Part shown: positions 1 through 10,999 of the stretch, piece by piece
How positions within the stretch are numbered: position 1 is the stretch's first letter
How the letters are laid out: every line of letters starts with the position of its first letter
NCBI RefSeq assembly: GCF_000275845.1
Contig: NW_006766959.1
Span: 1 to 10,999, forward strand
Direction of reading: 5' to 3'
Length of the DNA stretch: 10,999 bases
Origin: Dichomitus squalens LYAD-421 SS1
Taxonomy: Eukaryota > Basidiomycota > Agaricomycetes > Polyporales > Polyporaceae
The notes under the pieces: model-generated
The model's database searches: none
What the model saw: only the letters and a program-made list of their open reading frames with translations
What the model was told of the DNA's origin: nothing
Translations under genes and position numbers: made by a program

Positions 1-736
1 CAGGCGGTGGCGAGCGGTGGGCGGCTGAGTGCGCGCAACGCGATGCGCGGTGGCGTGCTGGCCCGCGAGCGCGTTCTTTGGCGCTGTTTGTACCCGATAT
101 AGCCCATAATACCCATAACCTTCTATATTATTCCATACAAGACTGGCTCGTGAGCTTACATCTGTAGTAGACAAGACCATGTCATATATATCAAGCCTCG
201 AGCCAATCATATGTTCAAGCCTCAAACACGAGACCTATATGACCCCTAGAGGGGCGCATCTACTCGAACCTCAACCCGGAGAGCTATCAACATCTTAATT
301 AGATGATCTAGTTCAACCCCAACCTTTTAACCCAAAGCTATCTATTTACAGGTATCATGATTTGGTCAGAGCGCAACTTTCTCATCAGCTACTACTCCGA
401 CCACTCTGCGAATACACACTTATTTGCAAGCACTCGCCCCTGTACCAGGAGGGTGTAAAACGCGGTGGACAACCCTTCAGCATTCTTTAGCGCACGTCGG
501 CAAAGGGACAAGTTAGGACTGTCTCGAAAACAGACCTCCGTTTCATGCGGAGGGATTCTGAGCGCTGCCCGTCGTGTGGCAGTCCTCACATTGGCTGCTC
601 ATCTGCTGAAGGACATGCGAGGAGGGGTATCAAATATATACATAGCTATAGATTATAACTGATGGTATTGTAAAAAGCGAAGTCGGAAATCTGAAGAGAG
701 TGGAAAGCGTCCTGTCCTGATCGGGGTGCACCGACT
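1..736. other. Gene-poor left flank with short repeats
   Basis: I see no convincing coding region here. The first ~90 bases are GC-rich and contain several GCGC-type words. From about 120 the sequence turns AT-richer, with a repeated TCAAGCCTC (191-199 and 215-223) and two similar stretches reading AACCC..AGCTATC (near 274-288 and 329-342). It may be the worn remains of a transposable element, but no terminal repeats with a target duplication could be shown. The stretch just below 737 should hold the 3' untranslated part of the minus-strand homeodomain gene; no AATAAA signal was seen. Confidence 0.4.
103..120 (-). repeat. Two TATGGG-type motifs, inverted relative to the right-end cluster
   Basis: Read on the minus strand this segment is GGTTATGGGTATTATGGG, which holds two TATGGG units and one GGTTATGGG word. 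The same words occur many times on the plus strand at 10494-10915. The two groups therefore lie in opposite orientation at the two ends of the window. Confidence 0.45.
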
Positions 737-3700
737 CTATGTGCAGAGCCCGATGTTCCGTGTCTCGAGCCAGGCAGCAAATCTGGCGAAGGTAACAGGT
801 TGGTCTTCATGTAACTCCGGCGACCTCGCAAACACGCCCTGCAATTGCGTCGCAAGTTGGAGGATTGTGTTCGCATCATAGTCGACTGCGGGCGAAGTGT
901 CCGGTTCCATCGCTCCAGCTATATGAACATACATCGATGAACAAGATGCTCACTGTCAAACAGGGAATTGCGCATACCGCTTATCGAGTCCTTCATTGAA
1001 GCATAAGTCGAGTCAAACAGAGGAATGACAGACTCTTCTTCACGAACTGCCAGGACCGCTGCGTCTGGGTTCAACAACATTGGAACGTCAGGCTTGCCCG
1101 AGTCTTGCCCCGCTTCGTCCTGGATTGCAGCCTCCGCAGTGCCACCCGGAACGTCTTGCGCCTCGCACGCAATAGAGTCTAGGACGCCAGCCCATCAGCT
1201 CCATACATGACATGGGACAACTTCGATCGCGAGATGAAGACAACTTACCCACTGCCACCTTGACCCCGCCCACTAGAGTTTGCTCCGCGTTTCGCTGTCC
1301 TCCGCTCGCGGTGTCCTCCTTCCGCACCGCGCATCTCCCGTTCTTGAAATACTTGTTTGCTCTGAACCACCGATGCACGTTCCTCGCTGAGAAACTCTCG
1401 CAGCCCGGGATCGCGTTGATCTGGTTCGCAAGCACCACTTCATCGGCCTTGCTGGGCTTAACGCCGACGGTAGCGTAATAGTCTACACGAGTGACACAGT
1501 CAATCAATACGATGTGCGGGGTGCACAAGTTGACAAGATGTGACAACTGACCGGCAAGGATATTATGAGCTTCGGGCGGGAGGTTCCGTGGTTTCTTCTG
1601 CTCGGGGATTGGGTCGGTATCGGGAAGTACGGCACCAGCGCTGTCATTCTCCACGTCCGATCCTGGAGCTGTATCGATCGTCTCCCTAGCAGAGACAGTG
1701 ACACCGAGCTCCCGCGTATGCTTTCCCGCGGCTTGAAATGACCCATGTGGATGGGGCCGCACAGCGTCCAAAACAGACTGCTGATGATGTGATTCAGCGG
1801 GCGCAAATCCAGACCCTTGATCGACTTTTAGTGATAAGAATGACAATAGCCCATCGCTGTCTCAGTACTGCTCATGCAACCGTAGTACATAAACGACGCA
1901 CTATCTGCAAGTTGAACATCCCGTGCGGAGGTGTGGGGGTCCGGAGACATCGAAATGTCAGGTGTATTTCCCTGGGCACCAGCTGCCTCCTCCATCGACA
2001 AAGATCCGGCTTCCTCAGAGGCGGGAACGCCTGGTTCGGAAGCGATAGCAGACCTGAACTCTCGATTCTCGACTGAGGCGGGAGATGACTGCTGCGACTG
2101 GTGCTCCATCCCTATAGCACACCCAGACACAGAGACGACGTCCAAGGCGGAGGCTGATGTTCGTCGGTAAATGTATCAACACAACTAGCGCGTGCAAACA
2201 AATATGCGTAATATTACTCACAGTTTTCAATTTGGGCATCCGTTACAGCGCCGGTCAGATTGTGGGACATAGGAATGTCAGGTGCACGGTCGCCTTCGCA
2301 AGCCCTCCCCACTTGCGACGGAGCCGACGCCACGCCAGCAGCGATAGCAGCGGAGACCCGGCTGGCGAGGGCGGCTTTCTCTGCCTTGCTGGGGTTCATG
2401 CTGACGGTGACGTAGTAGTCTATAAAATCGAGACGGTATCAATGAGCGCAGGTTTGTGGGGAAACACGATAGAGGGAAGGTGGGAAATGACCTTCGAGAA
2501 GTTTGTGAGCCTCAGGCGCCAGATAGGTCCTAGATGATTTGGGTTGCGTCTTCGTTTCGGGGCTCAAGTCGGATTCGGGGGACGGAGGCAGAACACCAGT
2601 ACTAGTGTCTCCTGCAACGTCTGATTCTGAAGGGTGATTGGTCGCCTGGGTGGCAGCGGCGGCAGATCCAGGCTCTGGAGCCTCCGCTGCACCAGGAGGT
2701 AGCTGGCGCAACTCAGGGCGGGGAGCAGGTAATGGCGACTTTTCCTGGGCGACAGGACTGTTAAGGATTGTGTACGAGAATGGGACGAGTGGCGGAGATT
2801 GTAGGGGCAGGCCTGTCAATGGGAACAAAGGAGGTTGTTGAACGAGCGTTGACTGCATGCTTGCAGATGCCGACTGGTGCGTCAATGGTGATTGTTGCGC
2901 GACCGACCATATATGCGTTGAGGACTGTGCGGGACCATCAAAGTCAGAGAGGACTAAGATGGGCGAAGGCAGAGGTGCATCTTGGTCGGGAGATACGGGA
3001 GAGACGAGAAGCGAGTCGTCGTAAGGCTCTTGTTTGACGAGGGCGGCTTGGATGAACAGGAACATGTGCGTTAGCAGTTATATATATATAATTGCCTTTT
3101 ACGTCGATTATGGCAATAACATGACGCATATACCCACCCTTGTTTGACTGGAACTCCGAGTCTGGTTCCTCCGCATTGGCACCGGCACCCGAACGCGGAA
3201 CTCGATGTTTCCGAGTTCTCAGATGATAGAAGTAGGCGGTGAGGCTCTTGAGCGTGTAGTGCTCACACCCTTCTGAATGCCGTACTTTCTCCAGTAGCTC
3301 GAGCCGCTGAGGCCGACTGGGAGTTTTGCTGATGTGTGTGAAGAAGTCTGGTATTTGGCGCATAAACTCCTGATGAGCACGCAGTCTCGCAATGAGTATG
3401 AGTGGTAGACGTGCCGTCCATGAGATTGTAGCCCCCACGGGCGATTTTCTTGTTCGGTTTCCTCTTCTGGTGTGAAGGTGCTGCTTGTGTCGAGAGGAGC
3501 AGAATGTTCTGCGAAGCAGCAGACGGGGAGCTGCTCGAAGCTATTTTCTCCCAAGCAGGTCCCGAAGAAGGCAGTGAGATTTGTGAGATTGAAGCAGAAA
3601 GAGCTTCCTGCTGGATCGAACAACGCTGTCAATAGGGCTACTCACCACATTTACATACGGTGCAGAACGAACACGTACCGCGCCCTGAGGCCCAGTGCCA

Positions 3701-4518
3701 GTCGAGCACGGCGGGTCCTGCGCTCGACCGCTGAGCACATCGCCCGCAGGGGGTCCCACCCTCGACCATACTTTATCTACTCAAATACAGTTAAAACACT
3801 TTCTGCAGCGATCTGGCAGGTGCTCGGATTGTGAGCTCACGGGACAGTGTCAAGGGCGTCTCCACGAGCTCGCGCTTCACCTGGACGTCCAGCGTCACGC
3901 GATGCTTGGCGCGCAACTTCTCAAAGTACTTCTGGACCTGCTTCGCCGTGTGCATCTCGCAGCCCGGGAGGTACTGTACCCTTGCAGCGAGGACAGCGCA
4001 TTCGTTCCTTCGGGGATTCCGATTGACACTGAAGAAGTAGTCTATCCATCATCCCGGTGAGTTTCACGGTATTACACTGATGCTACCGATGGCCTACCGT
4101 TGAAGATTGTATATGCCTCCTGAGGCAGGCGCCGCGAGGTCTTCTTTGGAGTAGAGGCGCTAGTACTCGACTGAAGCTCTTCGGCGGGGGCATCCTGGGA
4201 GACTGGTACCTCTTCAAGGTCAAAGACACTGCCATGCTCGATCAACGAGCTCTTGAGATGCCTGCCCATTGAGAGCTTGGCGAAGGTTATGTATGGGTGG
4301 CTATCAAGTCCGGAATGTTCGGGGATGGAGACGATGGGCGCAAACGACGCAGCCGCAAAATGTGCCTGCCACATCAATACGTCTTCTGAATATGACGTAA
4401 TCATATGCTGTGCGATGATTGGTGGAACGGCTGCGCCGAGGTGCCGAGAATGGTGTATGAGGCGCGCTTCGTAGATGACGATCTCTGCCTTGCTTCGCGT
4501 TTCTTTCAGGTCGCTCAT
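737..4518 (-). CDS. Predicted multi-homeodomain-like protein (four modules, 12 exons)
   Basis: Exons, all phase-compatible: 4518-4098, 4041-3841, 3776-3679, 3610-3415, 3347-3138, 3046-2492, 2419-2222, 2153-1902, 1824-1552, 1482-1249, 1178-978, 918-737. They total 3021 nt, about 1006 residues. From the N-terminus: a ~125-residue region, homeodomain-like modules near residues 128-188, 293-355, 548-582 (cut short) and 788-850, Ser/Pro/Gln-rich linkers, and a C-terminal motif TFARFAAWLETRN. The fit to the homeodomain pattern (helix, loop, helix, V..[WY]F) suggests a nuclear DNA-binding or partner-binding regulator; this is inference. The start chosen is the ATG of MSDLKE at 4518; an in-frame ATG at 4608 is also open. 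Exons 4 and 9, which lead into modules 2 and 4, have no upstream Met of their own, so they need splicing from earlier exons. Alternatives: modules 3-4 could start at ATG 3065 (after a TATATA run) or module 4 at ATG 2109, and module 1 could stop at TAA 3793-3791 if intron 2 is not spliced. Weakest joins: intron 1901-1825 (AAAG acceptor) and the GC donor at 3414. The divergent gene at 4885 is a paralogue. Confidence 0.5.
1334..1588 (-). repeat. Homeodomain-like module 4 (complete)
   Basis: It reads RNLPPEAHNILA, a 69-nt phase-1 intron (1551-1483) whose length is a multiple of three, so the unspliced frame also stays open, then DYYATVGVKPSKADEVVLAN and IPGCESFSARNVHRWFRANK. It is the only copy with the canonical Trp-Phe in helix 3. 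Ala stands at the Asn51 position and Lys at Arg53, with an Asn one residue later. It is followed by a 70-nt intron (1248-1179) with a strong GTAAGT donor. Confidence 0.75.
2257..2352 (-). repeat. Linker segment after module 3, repeated in the next exon
   Basis: This segment encodes SAAIAAGVASAPSQVG ... APDIPMSHN. The next exon (2153-1902) encodes SAIASEPGVPASEEAG ... TPDISMSPD, in the same order. At DNA level the plus strand shares GCGATAGCAG and a GACAT(A/C)G(G/A)AATGTCAGGTG word (near 2266 and 1945). The two were probably duplicated along with a module. The first copy begins exactly where module 3 loses its homeodomain similarity. Confidence 0.5.
2355..2531 (-). repeat. Homeodomain-like module 3 (cut short before helix 3)
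   Basis: It reads RTYLAPEAHKLLE, a 72-nt phase-1 intron (2491-2420), then DYYVTVSMNPSKAEKAALAS and RV. It matches module 4 closely up to that point (DYYATVGVKPSKADEVVLAN). After RV the resemblance stops: there is no GCE loop and no [WY]F recognition helix. The frame stays open for a further ~44 residues, which resemble part of the next exon (SAIA ... PDIxMS). The module is therefore structurally incomplete and is unlikely to bind DNA alone. Confidence 0.65.
3078..3092. repeat. TA dinucleotide run
   Basis: This short TATATA tract lies in the predicted 91-nt intron 3137-3047. In the alternative model it sits about 15-30 nt upstream of the ATG at 3065 on the minus strand, where it could serve as a TATA element for a separate gene carrying modules 3 and 4. 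A CTAAC branch-point-like word lies between the run and the acceptor, which favours the intron reading. Confidence 0.45.
3202..3451 (-). repeat. Homeodomain-like module 2 (complete, GC donor in its intron)
   Basis: The sequence reads KKIARGGYNLMD, then an intron, then DFFTHISKTPSRP..SEGCEHYTLKSLTAYFYHLRTRK. The 67-nt intron (3414-3348) sits at the same codon and phase as in the other copies, but its donor is GC (GCACGT) instead of GT. Helix 3 keeps Tyr-Phe and Arg53, has His for Asn51, and has Leu for the usual Val47-type position. GCE is kept, while the preceding Pro is Glu. No in-frame ATG lies upstream within its exon, so it depends on splicing from the preceding exon (intron 3678-3611). 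Confidence 0.65.
3899..4134 (-). repeat. Homeodomain-like module 1 (complete)
   Basis: The module starts at RRLPQEAYTIFN, is interrupted by a 56-nt phase-1 intron (4097-4042), and continues DYFFSVNRNP..LAARV..LPGCEMHTAKQVQKYFEKLRAK. The last part matches homeodomain helix 3, with Tyr-Phe in place of Trp-Phe, Lys in place of the canonical Asn51, and Arg53 kept. It aligns without gaps to modules 2 and 4 and to the plus-strand gene. About 127 residues precede it, the longest N-terminal region of any copy here. Confidence 0.75.
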
Positions 4519-4884: not shown

Positions 4885-6225
4885 ATGGATCGATCGGAGG
4901 CTCACAAAAAAAGATGGAAGCGCTTGCAACCAGAGGCGTACAATCTCCTTAATGGTGAGTCTGCACCTACGCACGCAGGCTATGGGGTGTGGAAGAGAAC
5001 TCGATGCTGACTTCATGACGTGGACGTTGCGCAGACTACTTTTGCAATGTCTCCCGGCGCCCGGACGACGCTGCACAAAAAGCGCTTGCAGAGAAAGTCA
5101 GGCACATCCCTGGCTGCGAGCATTACACTGCCCATCACGTCAAACAGTATTTCTCGAATACTAGGTCGAAAATGAGGGACCCAGGCGCCAAGCTGCCAAT
5201 GGGACGTGGCCACAAACGACGGAAGGGTGCGAACGGTCTTTCATGTACCCGAGCGCTCTTAGGAATGGTTTCAACAGTCTCCACAGGTGATCTGTACCAA
5301 TCGCCGTCCACGATGCCCCATATCGGTTCGTCTCTCGCGTGTCCTACTATCTCTCCTGCTTACTCTTTGTATACAATGCAGATCCTATATCCGTCGTATC
5401 GAAGTTGGACGTGCTGCTCAAAGAGGACCCGGACCCTTCCATTGAAATGGCGGAGATCTGGGCGGAGAGCCTAGGGGACGATGTCTTTCCCGAACACATA
5501 CTCACATATGCGTTCCTTCGTCGAGCTTCCAGTCGGCAAGGCTCGATAGATGAGGTAACGTCACGCGAGCACTTGGAGCGGCAAGGTTGAGGACTGACCA
5601 CATAATCTACACCACTCCATCAGAAATGGGTCGCAGGGCCTTCGGCTGATATACATACTCCGAGTTTAGCACTAGCTGCCCCCGACATCCTCGCTTCAGG
5701 GTCATCGTCCGGCCCTAGCGACTATCAATCTGTACAGGGTTCGCCGTCATCCCTCTGTCAGTCTCCGCTTCCGTCGTTACCGCTGCATCATCCAAGCGGC
5801 GACTCGACGGGGCACCTGACACCAGCGATGAATCCGTCGTCACTGCTCCTTATTCCAAAGGTGGAAGAGGCCACGCTCGGTGAGGATATCATTGTAGTGT
5901 CTTGCTAGCACCTCAGCACTCACTCTTCCGCAATCATTTCGCCTTTTCGCGTACTTCTATAGAGGGCGCCTCAAACGAGGCTGGATCCCTGTCTCAGACC
6001 GTTCGTCTCTCTGGGCCTGTTCGCCCCTCTGGGCGTGCAGCCTCGCATGCAACGTCGCCTCCCCAACAGCTTGTTATCCTACCCGAGGAATTGGCTCAAG
6101 GGCTCCGAGCCGCACCGCTTGATTCGGTCTCTCGGGACGATAGCGAGATTCCGAAGACATTCGCCGACTTCACCCGCTGGTTGCAACAGCTGAACGCCAG
6201 CGCCGGTATAGGGACGCTGTCGTGA
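4885..6225 (+). CDS. Homeodomain-like protein, single complete module (paralogue of the minus-strand gene)
   Basis: Exons: 4885-4954, 5035-5325, 5382-5554, 5624-5879, 5963-6225 (1053 nt, about 350 residues); introns 80, 56, 69 and 83 nt, all GT-AG and phase-consistent. The N-terminus is basic (HKKRWKR), followed by the module at residues ~12-72 (LQPEAYNLLN, intron, DYFCNVSRRP, LAEKV, IPGCEHYT, HVKQYFSNTRSK). Helix 3 keeps Phe49, Asn51 and Arg53, so this is the most canonical copy in the window. Residues ~125-170 (DPDPS..WAESLG..ILTYAFLRR) faintly recall a second homeodomain. Then come a Ser/Pro-rich stretch and a C-terminal TFADFTRWLQQLN motif shared with the minus-strand gene. It is probably a nuclear transcription regulator, by fold pattern only. 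The start is uncertain: ATG 4885 gives a very short N-terminus compared with ~127 residues in the paralogue, so an upstream exon may exist. It is divergent from the minus-strand gene. Confidence 0.7.
4918..5177 (+). repeat. Homeodomain-like module of the plus-strand gene
   Basis: From KRLQPEAYNLLN through the 80-nt phase-1 intron (4955-5034, GTGAGT donor, CTGAC branch-like word) to QYFSNTRSK. After the intron every landmark falls at the same residue offset as in modules 1, 2 and 4: Pro at 9, Leu at 17, Gly-Cys-Glu at 26-28, aromatic-Phe at 38-39. Asn is at 41 and Arg at 43, which correspond to canonical Asn51 and Arg53. Confidence 0.8.
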
Positions 6226-9324: not shown

Positions 9325-9635
9325 ATGCGTTTCACCGCTGCCATTGTCAACCTCGCCGTCGCCCTCTGTGCTATCAACGCCGGAGCCGCCATCGCTGCCG
9401 CTGCTCCTGGGAAGCTCGAGGCTCGCCAGACTGCTTGCGATATCATAAATTGTACTACGGATGCCGAATGCTCAGGGTGCCCCGCTCTCCTTGGTCAGAC
9501 CTGGACGTGCGATCGTGTGGCCGGCCTTCTCGGGGTGAGTCTGCTCTCCAACTCTGATCGCTTAGTGACTATTCGTTTTGACTCTTGGACCATGTATAGG
9601 TGTGCCTCCCAATTCCTCTTCCTTCACCGCTCTAA
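9325..9635 (+). CDS. Small secreted six-cysteine protein
   Basis: Two exons, 9325-9534 and 9600-9635, encode 81 residues. The 65-nt intron (9535-9599) has a GTGAGT donor and a TATAG acceptor. Residues 1 to ~24 form an Ala-rich hydrophobic signal peptide (MRFTAAIVNLAVAL...). A LEARQ sequence at 31-35 resembles the monobasic pro-site frequent in fungal secreted proteins. The mature part has six cysteines (38, 43, 49, 52, 62, 72) spaced C-x4-C-x5-C-x2-C-x9-C-x9-C, the last one supplied by exon 2, and one possible N-glycosylation site (Asn42-Cys-Thr). Six cysteines suggest three disulfides and a stable extracellular mini-protein, possibly effector-like or antimicrobial; I do not recognise the family. 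Unspliced, the frame would run to 9720 and lose Cys72. The TATA box at 9175 and the leader intron support a real gene. Confidence 0.75.
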
Positions 9636-10490
9636 TCTGGGATGGCACAAGGCCCCCAGGTCTCACCGGTCTAAGGGACCAAGGCAGGCACCAATCGCTC
9701 CATCAGAGTGGAGGCATTAAGTTTTGATGAGGTTCACGGTATTACGTCGTATGCGGCAAAGTTATAGTGAGAAAAGGAAAACCCATATGTATGTCTCGTG
9801 ATGTATGACATGTTGGATTGGATTCTGCGCTACCCCCACCGACGCGACTGCCACCTCGACCCTGTTGACCTGAATTGGGTACCTCAATATTGGCAGTTAC
9901 TGAAGTATCGCGGCTCGGGTGAAAGTCATCTTAGAGCCATGATGTCCTCTGACTGCGACTCCATAACCCTCTGTGCCGCCGATGCGGCAAATTGTCAGCG
10001 CTTTCATGGTGTCTCCCTCAGAATATGATTACAAACATGAGGATAGGTGCATGCTGTCTGATGTCTGGGTGATCTGGGTTTACAGACTCTCTTTATCTCC
10101 GTCTCTCCAAAGCTTGGCTTCTACCTTCTTCCACCCCGCACTGGGGGCTCCCTCAGCTGAGCAGGTTCGCGTAGGCGAGGTACTCAAGCATGTTCGAGCA
10201 GATATATATGCACAGAAAATACTCCAGTTATCTTAGCCTCTGTGGGAGTACTTGAGTCGCTCTCTAGCAGTGTGTAAGGGGCCATTCGCTGAAGAGCGTG
10301 GATCTGCGTTGATATGAGCGCCTGACTGGTGACATCACGTGCCCCATATCCACATGCGCGTCGGTAGTCCGGTTATGGGCATACCCGCCCTGTTCCGCCT
10401 CGCAATGTTCTGTTCATTGATGTCCTCATCGCCCGGTTATCGTCGCCGCCGAGATTCATCTCTCCCTGCATCTACTACAGTCGACACCCT
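9636..10490. other. 3' flank of the secreted-protein gene, no further gene seen
   Basis: The first ~150 bases probably hold the 3' untranslated region; no clear AATAAA was seen. Remaining open frames (for example 9798-10028 and 9973-10236) are short, overlap each other and show no motif. An E-box-like CACGTG lies at 10336-10341 without an identifiable target gene. Confidence 0.4.
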
Positions 10491-10493
10491 CTT

Positions 10494-10915
10494 AACCCAT
10501 AGCCCTCGGGACAGGCCCGAATATATGGGTTTTGAGGGGTTATGGGCTGCGAGAACTTAAGCGCCTCATAAGCGCCCCTGATTAGTCCCAGTTAGCGAGC
10601 GCTGGAAAGGCGTCTACTGACCCTTTGAGAGAGCGCTATGAGATTTCGAACAGACTCACCTACCCACAACGTGGTCGGAGCATGGATGGACACTGGGAGG
10701 ACTCTGGGAAGCATGCATCGAGTATTGCAAAGGTTATCGATGAGCGTAATCTCAATGTGAGCCCTATTACCGTATGGGTTTTGGGCCCTAGAAAGCTATG
10801 GGTTATTGGGTACCAGGGGCCTATGGGTTATGGGGTCGAATTCCCCCTATCCCGACTTGGGAAAGCCAAAATCTTATGGGTTTCGGGAGTTTATGGGTTA
10901 CCAGGGGTATGGGTT
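10494..10915 (+). repeat. Cluster of degenerate TATGGGTT motifs
   Basis: Plus-strand TATGGGTT occurs at 10524-10531, 10773-10780, 10797-10804, 10822-10829, 10875-10882, 10892-10899 and 10908-10915. Shorter TATGGG units lie at 10541 and 10829, and one inverted AACCCATA at 10494-10501. Spacing is irregular. A longer word, TACCAGGGG followed by (CC)TATGGGTTA, appears twice (10810-10830 and 10899-10916). It is not a canonical TTAGGG telomere array. It may be a dispersed low-complexity family or part of a mobile element. Confidence 0.6.
10506..10520. repeat. Short inverted repeat inside the motif cluster
   Basis: TCGGG (10506-10510) and CCCGA (10516-10520) form a stem with a five-base loop. This stem is itself flanked by AACCCATA (10494-10501) and TATGGGTT (10524-10531), also inverted, giving a nested two-part hairpin of 38 bases. 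Confidence 0.5.
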
Positions 10916-10999
10916 AGGAGGGTGTCGACTGTACTACTAATCATATCTCATGCTCCTATATCCTTCATGGCTAGCGAATCCCCATCGACCTCGACACCC

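What the first reader, a model, noticed from the sequence alone, without database searches (positions are those of the whole stretch)
737..4518. One continuous frame appears to thread four homeodomain-like modules into a single protein
Twelve minus-strand exons can be joined through eleven introns of 56-91 nt with every phase matching and no stop, giving 3021 nt. The exons leading into modules 2 and 4 contain no usable Met, so they cannot start a gene by themselves. Fungal homeodomain proteins normally carry one homeodomain; a poly-homeodomain protein would be unusual.
Basis: partly seen in the sequence, partly recalled or inferred. Interest (0 to 1): 0.85.

Follow-up and report, generated by a model that had tools for sequence, protein, structure and literature searches.

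The report
Fungal gene with four decaying homeodomains
A wood-rotting fungus appears to carry one gene that strings together four copies of a DNA-binding module, but the copies have lost key DNA-contact features, so it is more likely an unusual offshoot of a small gene family than a four-handed DNA reader.

Summary
Codon usage favours the joined frame over both other same-strand frames in 12 of 12 exons. Inter-module joins with consensus donors arise in only 1 to 24 of 1000 shuffles. A public Dichomitus squalens model (BD309DRAFT_994554, 837 aa, 99% identical) has the same ten downstream junctions but starts inside module 1. One gene is the best reading; transcription is untested.

The modules are homeodomain derivatives: a family profile matches Exd/PBX and module 4 is predicted to fold as a homeodomain. 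Three relatives carry one homeodomain, a middle domain and a tail: the divergent plus-strand gene 4885-6225, the C96 gene and Cerioporus squamosus P0004. The minus gene has four homeodomain units, no detectable middle domain and one tail. None of the four keeps Asn51 in the best alignment, and module 3 has lost helix 3.

So 'poly-homeodomain' holds as anatomy, hardly as four DNA readers. Nor is it unique: this genome also has a canonical, probably three-homeodomain gene.

The parts
4098..4518 (-). exon 1: ATG 4518, 107-aa N-terminus without another match in the genome, first half of module 1 (helix 1)
   Evidence: one match, itself; codon margin reached by 0 of 200 shuffles
3841..4041 (-). exon 2: second half of module 1; the public D. 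squalens model P0001 starts in this exon
3899..4134 (-). module 1 (homeodomain-like; Y48 F49 E50 K51, Asn51 lost)
   Evidence: position numbers by comparison with the Exd alignment
3679..3776 (-). exon 3, linker; weakest exon
   Evidence: (44 of 200 shuffles reach its codon margin)
3415..3610 (-). exon 4, linker and first half of module 2; only in-frame ATG lies inside the homeodomain
3348..3414 (-). intron 4, GC-AG, at the family's homeodomain intron position
   Evidence: same join in P0001
3208..3451 (-). module 2 (Y48 F49 Y50 H51); three helices predicted with moderate confidence
3138..3347 (-). exon 5
2492..3046 (-). exon 6, long Pro/Ser/Ala-rich linker and first half of module 3
2343..2534 (-). 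module 3, degenerate: helices 1-2 recognisable by sequence, IPGCE loop and helix 3 lost
2222..2419 (-). exon 7
1902..2153 (-). exon 8, linker; shares a weak PD[IV]xM repeat with exons 7 and 11
   Evidence: E 0.4 to 4.3, suggestive only
1552..1824 (-). exon 9, linker and first half of module 4; no in-frame ATG
   Evidence: codon margin weak
1313..1591 (-). module 4 (W48 F49 R50 A51); confident homeodomain fold
   Evidence: (pLDDT blocks 84-95)
1249..1482 (-). exon 10
978..1178 (-). exon 11
737..918 (-). exon 12 with the family's C-terminal tail (TFARFAAWLETRN) and stop TAG 739-737
   Evidence: E 0.022-0.051 to the other tails
4885..6225 (+). divergent single-homeodomain paralogue: exons 4885-4954, 5035-5325, 5382-5554, 5624-5879, 5963-6225; homeodomain with N51 and R53, middle domain, tail
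   Evidence: the homeodomain part is missing from public models P0002 and P0003

Best explanation
The stretch is one 12-exon gene of a fast-evolving homeodomain family seen so far only in Dichomitus squalens and Cerioporus squamosus. It most likely arose by repeated internal duplication of the two-exon homeodomain unit, with loss of the middle domain and of all tails but the last. Shown here: the open joined frame, codon bias towards that frame in every exon, the shared homeodomain intron, homology of the modules, a single detectable tail, absence of Asn51 in all four modules in the best alignment and of helix 3 in module 3. Inferred: that it is transcribed as one mRNA. Also inferred: that the protein no longer reads DNA through four sites but works, if at all, by protein contacts or weak non-specific DNA contact. 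The likeliest form is competition or pairing with single-homeodomain paralogues such as its divergent neighbour, whose start lies 366 nt away. I put about 0.75 on one gene and about 0.35 on the protein-contact mechanism given one gene; relaxed, partly decayed function is the main alternative.
Confidence: 0.6

Rival explanations
1. Two to four adjacent small genes or gene remnants, tandem copies of the single-homeodomain gene, that happen to be joinable because the family's introns are mostly phase 1.
For: Introns are phase 1 in 10 of 11 here and the two relatives modelled use 1, 1, 0, 1, so neighbouring copies would be joinable. Decayed copies with stops exist at C79:74687 and upstream of the C28 gene.
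Against: No tail or middle domain detected after modules 1-3. Modules 2 and 4 have no usable start in their own exons. Linker exons lean to the joined frame. Consensus-donor joins are rare in shuffles. The D. squalens annotation joins them.
Confidence: 0.2
2. A single gene on its way to becoming a pseudogene: an expanded homeodomain gene under little or no selection, still open because it is lightly constrained.
For: Module 3 has lost helix 3 and all modules lack Asn51. Seven amino-acid differences from the other strain in 837 residues, two of them in module 2 and none in modules 3-4, so no visible protection of the modules, though the numbers are tiny. The middle domain is not found.
Against: 3021 nt without a stop, splice sites intact, codon bias kept; modules share only 15-33% identity with each other, so the duplications look old, yet the frame has stayed open.
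Confidence: 0.3
3. A true four-site DNA-reading poly-homeodomain transcription factor.
For: Homeodomain fold of module 4 and three predicted helices in module 2; multi-homeodomain proteins exist, up to 12 in C. elegans CEH-100 (PMC4901127, section 24 read), and a probable three-homeodomain gene exists in this genome.
Against: No Asn51 in any module in the best alignment; no helix 3 in module 3; all below the Pfam cut-off.
Confidence: 0.05
4. Mating-type (MAT-A) homeodomain locus, which also shows divergent gene pairs and high allelic divergence (recalled).
For: Divergent pair of homeodomain-type genes; the neighbour is 84% identical in amino acids to its BD311 counterpart.
Against: Peptidase M3 genes (mip flanks MAT-A; recalled) lie on C1 at 1376167-1377665, about 1.5 kb from a homeodomain hit at C1:1374533-1374658, and on C7 at 1059677-1061308; none on C77.
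Confidence: 0.02

Closest known systems
Single-homeodomain relatives: window plus-strand gene (public models P0002, P0003, D. squalens), Cerioporus squamosus C8T65DRAFT_97420 (P0004), own-genome C96 and C28 genes
   Same: Same homeodomain with IPGCE loop-2 insert; same intron inside the homeodomain (phase 1) in my models of the plus, C96 and C28 genes; C-terminal tail in the plus gene, P0004 and C96
   Different: One homeodomain plus a middle domain; the minus gene has four units and no detectable middle domain
D. squalens hypothetical protein BD309DRAFT_994554 (P0001)
   Same: The same gene in another strain, same junctions from exon 2 on
   Different: Annotated from an internal Met, so without exon 1 and the first part of module 1; seven amino-acid differences
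Probable three-homeodomain gene at C1:2518109-2519388 in the same genome
   Same: Several homeodomains in one fungal gene
   Different: Canonical WFQN/WFRN recognition helices, above Pfam cut-off; different family
Animal multi-homeodomain proteins (ZF class, DVE family, CEH-100 with 12; PMC4901127 section 24) and mouse double-homeodomain Crxos (PMC5787275, abstract start in a search listing)
   Same: Several homeodomains in one protein, in Crxos by duplication
   Different: Animal families; no sequence kinship tested
HOPX, homeodomain-only protein that lacks DNA-binding capacity (PMC9179269, abstract start in a search listing)
   Same: Homeodomain fold lacking residues needed for DNA binding
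   Different: Single small domain in animals; analogy only

Membership tests
Homeodomain superfamily | three-helix fold | tested here: met
   Module 4 only with confidence: helices 625-638, 644-655, 665-674 of P0001, pLDDT blocks 84-95, PDB rows nearly all homeodomains. Module 2: three helices at about 58-74. Module 3: one helix. Module 1 is only partly present in P0001, so not tested.
Homeodomain superfamily | aromatic 48 and F49 core signature in helix 3 | tested here: met
   3 of 4: YF, YF and WF in modules 1, 2 and 4; absent in module 3 (signature from PMC4901127 section 5)
Homeodomain superfamily | Asn51 base contact (recalled as near-invariant) | tested here: not met
   K, H, lost, A in modules 1-4; one alternative alignment of module 4 with a 6-residue gap puts an N there
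Homeodomain superfamily | Pfam PF00046 above its cut-off of 22.9 bits | tested here: not met
   15.4 bits module 1; no homeodomain row for modules 2, 3 or 4 alone (module 4's only row is an unrelated family at 13.3 bits); 21.2 for the whole protein; 14.5 for P0001
[quoted passage not shown]
   Best profile match is TALE (Exd/PBX), but in that alignment the family is two residues shorter than Exd in loop 1 and seven longer in loop 2
Window family (homeodomain, middle domain, tail) | homeodomain with an internal phase-1 intron at the same place | tested here: met
Window family (homeodomain, middle domain, tail) | middle domain | tested here: not met
   No tblastn match inside the minus gene better than E 1.1 with three middle-domain queries; a much diverged copy could be missed
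Window family (homeodomain, middle domain, tail) | C-terminal tail | tested here: met
   Weak but reciprocal: E 0.022-0.051, at the C-terminus in both genes
MAT-A homeodomain locus | next to mip (peptidase M3; recalled) | tested here: not met
   Peptidase M3 matches on C1 and C7 only
Single transcription unit | mRNA spanning all modules | not testable with these tools
   no transcript data

The most novel reading that the evidence does not exclude
A fungal lineage has built, by internal duplication, a four-unit homeodomain protein in which every unit lost its DNA-reading asparagine, kept as a dedicated competitor or scaffold for the DNA-reading single-homeodomain protein encoded divergently next to it.
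Probability: 0.15. Interest if true: 0.65.

Novelty: new variant of a known kind. Interest (0 to 1): 0.42.

Why it matters
If transcribed as one mRNA it would be an example of homeodomain multiplication inside a gene in a mushroom-forming fungus, with parallel loss of DNA-contact residues, in a family whose members score below Pfam's cut-off and whose D. squalens public models cut off homeodomain exons. It gives a case for asking how regulators turn into competitors or decay. If it is not one mRNA, it is a local cluster of homeodomain remnants.

Tried and rejected
MAT-A locus: rejected by the position of the peptidase M3 genes, on C1 and C7. Middle domain as a second, degenerate homeodomain: the single-sequence model of P0004 gives three helices there, and among Foldseek's top rows are double domains such as DUX4, but profile-profile comparison found nothing and the sequence search gave no homeodomain among 7 rows. 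Left open. Wider family search with alignment A1 returned nothing, not even known members, so it says nothing about spread; the first search scored only the 7993 candidates sharing most words. NCBIfam, a prokaryotic library, gave no match. Tandem repeats and tRNAs: none reported in the window. Literature: ten paper searches; the listed titles and abstract starts (at most 15 a search, none) name neither this family nor a fungal poly-homeodomain protein; most subscription papers are not held. Codon training used 1157 codons from four ORFs on C1, three of which come from homeodomain genes of other families. The C28 gene model has stops near its 3' end in my splicing; only its homeodomain and middle domain were used.

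Full report
Observation. The window is bases 1-10999 of contig C77 (120,588 bp) of a 40.35-Mb assembly. Its proteins match Dichomitus squalens records at 99-100%, so the organism is most likely that species. Ten introns are GT-AG and one (3414-3348) GC-AG.

More than chance? Phase agreement alone means little, because ten of eleven introns are phase 1 and the two single-module relatives that I modelled use phases 1, 1, 0, 1. I therefore shuffled each inter-module linker 1000 times with dinucleotides kept. With any GTR donor an open join with no more introns than observed appeared in 295 (M1-M2), 9 (M2-M3), 16 (M3-M4) and 104 (M4-tail) of 1000. With a GTRNGY donor the counts were 24, 3, 1 and 10. 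In an earlier run with 300 shuffles and other site rules the strictest rule found no path in the real M2-M3 and M3-M4 linkers, whose acceptors include AAG. Codon usage trained on 1157 codons from four ORFs on C1, outside this family, prefers the joined frame over the other two same-strand frames in 12 of 12 exons, and over all five others in 9 of 12 (an antisense frame wins in exons 3, 8 and 9). Against stop-free shuffles the margin is convincing for exons 1, 2, 4 and 10 (0-1 of 200), moderate for 5, 6, 7, 8, 11 and 12 (6-19 of 200), and absent for 3 and 9 (44 of 200 each). Eleven of twelve exons, exon 3 excepted, score above the best of 14 intergenic 200-nt segments.

Public model. A search of 5.8 billion proteins, in which 7993 candidates were scored, returned one hit, P0001, D. 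squalens BD309DRAFT_994554, 837 aa. Aligned, it matches residues 170-1006 with seven differences and no gap, so the ten junctions after exon 2's Met are the same. It is a prediction on almost the same DNA; whether transcripts supported it I could not learn (the genome paper is not held). It begins inside module 1, so exon 1 and the first join have no outside support.

State of the modules. In the position aligned with homeodomain Asn51, the plus gene, the C28 gene and P0004 have N; C96 and one C79 copy have T; modules 1, 2 and 4 have K, H and A, and module 3 has lost the helix. An alternative alignment with a gap would give module 4 an N. That Asn51 is the near-invariant base contact is recalled. 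Modules are 15-33% identical to each other; in all 15 pairs tested among modules 1-4, the plus gene and P0004 no shuffle of 300 reached the score. They are homologous and look old.

Family architecture. The plus-strand neighbour (4885-6225), the C96 gene and C. squamosus P0004 have homeodomain, middle domain and C-terminal tail; the C28 gene has the first two. The minus gene has a detectable tail only at its end (E 0.022-0.051) and no detectable middle domain. Other own-genome copies lie on C28, C79 (two, one with stops) and C96. Between D. squalens strains the plus gene differs in 6 of 62 columns in the middle part, 4 of 50 in the tail and 28 of 128 in the linker (P0003), as expected if the domains are constrained.

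Not unique. A PF00046 search of the genome gave 11 matches from 19 candidates, none in the window. Three lie within 1.3 kb on C1, and open frames there carry the end of one homeodomain and the start of the next in a single frame (two matched stretches in two of three ORFs), so that gene very likely encodes three canonical homeodomains; I did not splice it. Multi-homeodomain proteins are known in animals (PMC4901127, sections 5 and 24 read; passages). The window is not MAT-A as far as the peptidase M3 marker tells (C1 and C7).

Conclusion. One gene with four homeodomain-derived units is the best reading (about 0.75). Four DNA-reading homeodomains is unlikely (0.05). Protein-contact or competitor function and relaxed decay are both open; dN/dS between strains and cDNA would separate them.

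Noticed in passing
L037 (G000:C1:2516000-2522000), about 2110-3500: A canonical gene, very probably with three homeodomains, whose open frames bridge one homeodomain to the next; contradicts the idea that fungal homeodomain proteins carry only one.
   Followed up: partly
window 4885-6225 (+): Single-homeodomain gene whose public models (P0002, P0003) start at an internal Met and omit the homeodomain.
   Followed up: yes
P0004 residues 129-171; window 5382-5554: Middle domain shared by the plus gene, C28, C96 and P0004, predicted as three helices in P0004; might be a second degenerate homeodomain, not supported by profile comparison.
   Followed up: partly
G000:C79:74687 and L014:3500-3631: Decayed copies of the same homeodomain with in-frame stops.
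   Followed up: partly
window 9325-9533 (+): Short open frame with a signal-peptide-like start and several cysteines, like a small secreted protein.
   Followed up: no
window 95-120 and 10490-10920: Scattered TATGGGTTA-like words near both window ends, not reported as tandem repeats.
   Followed up: no
G000:C1:1374533-1377665: Homeodomain hit beside a peptidase M3 gene, perhaps the MAT-A locus of this genome.
   Followed up: partly
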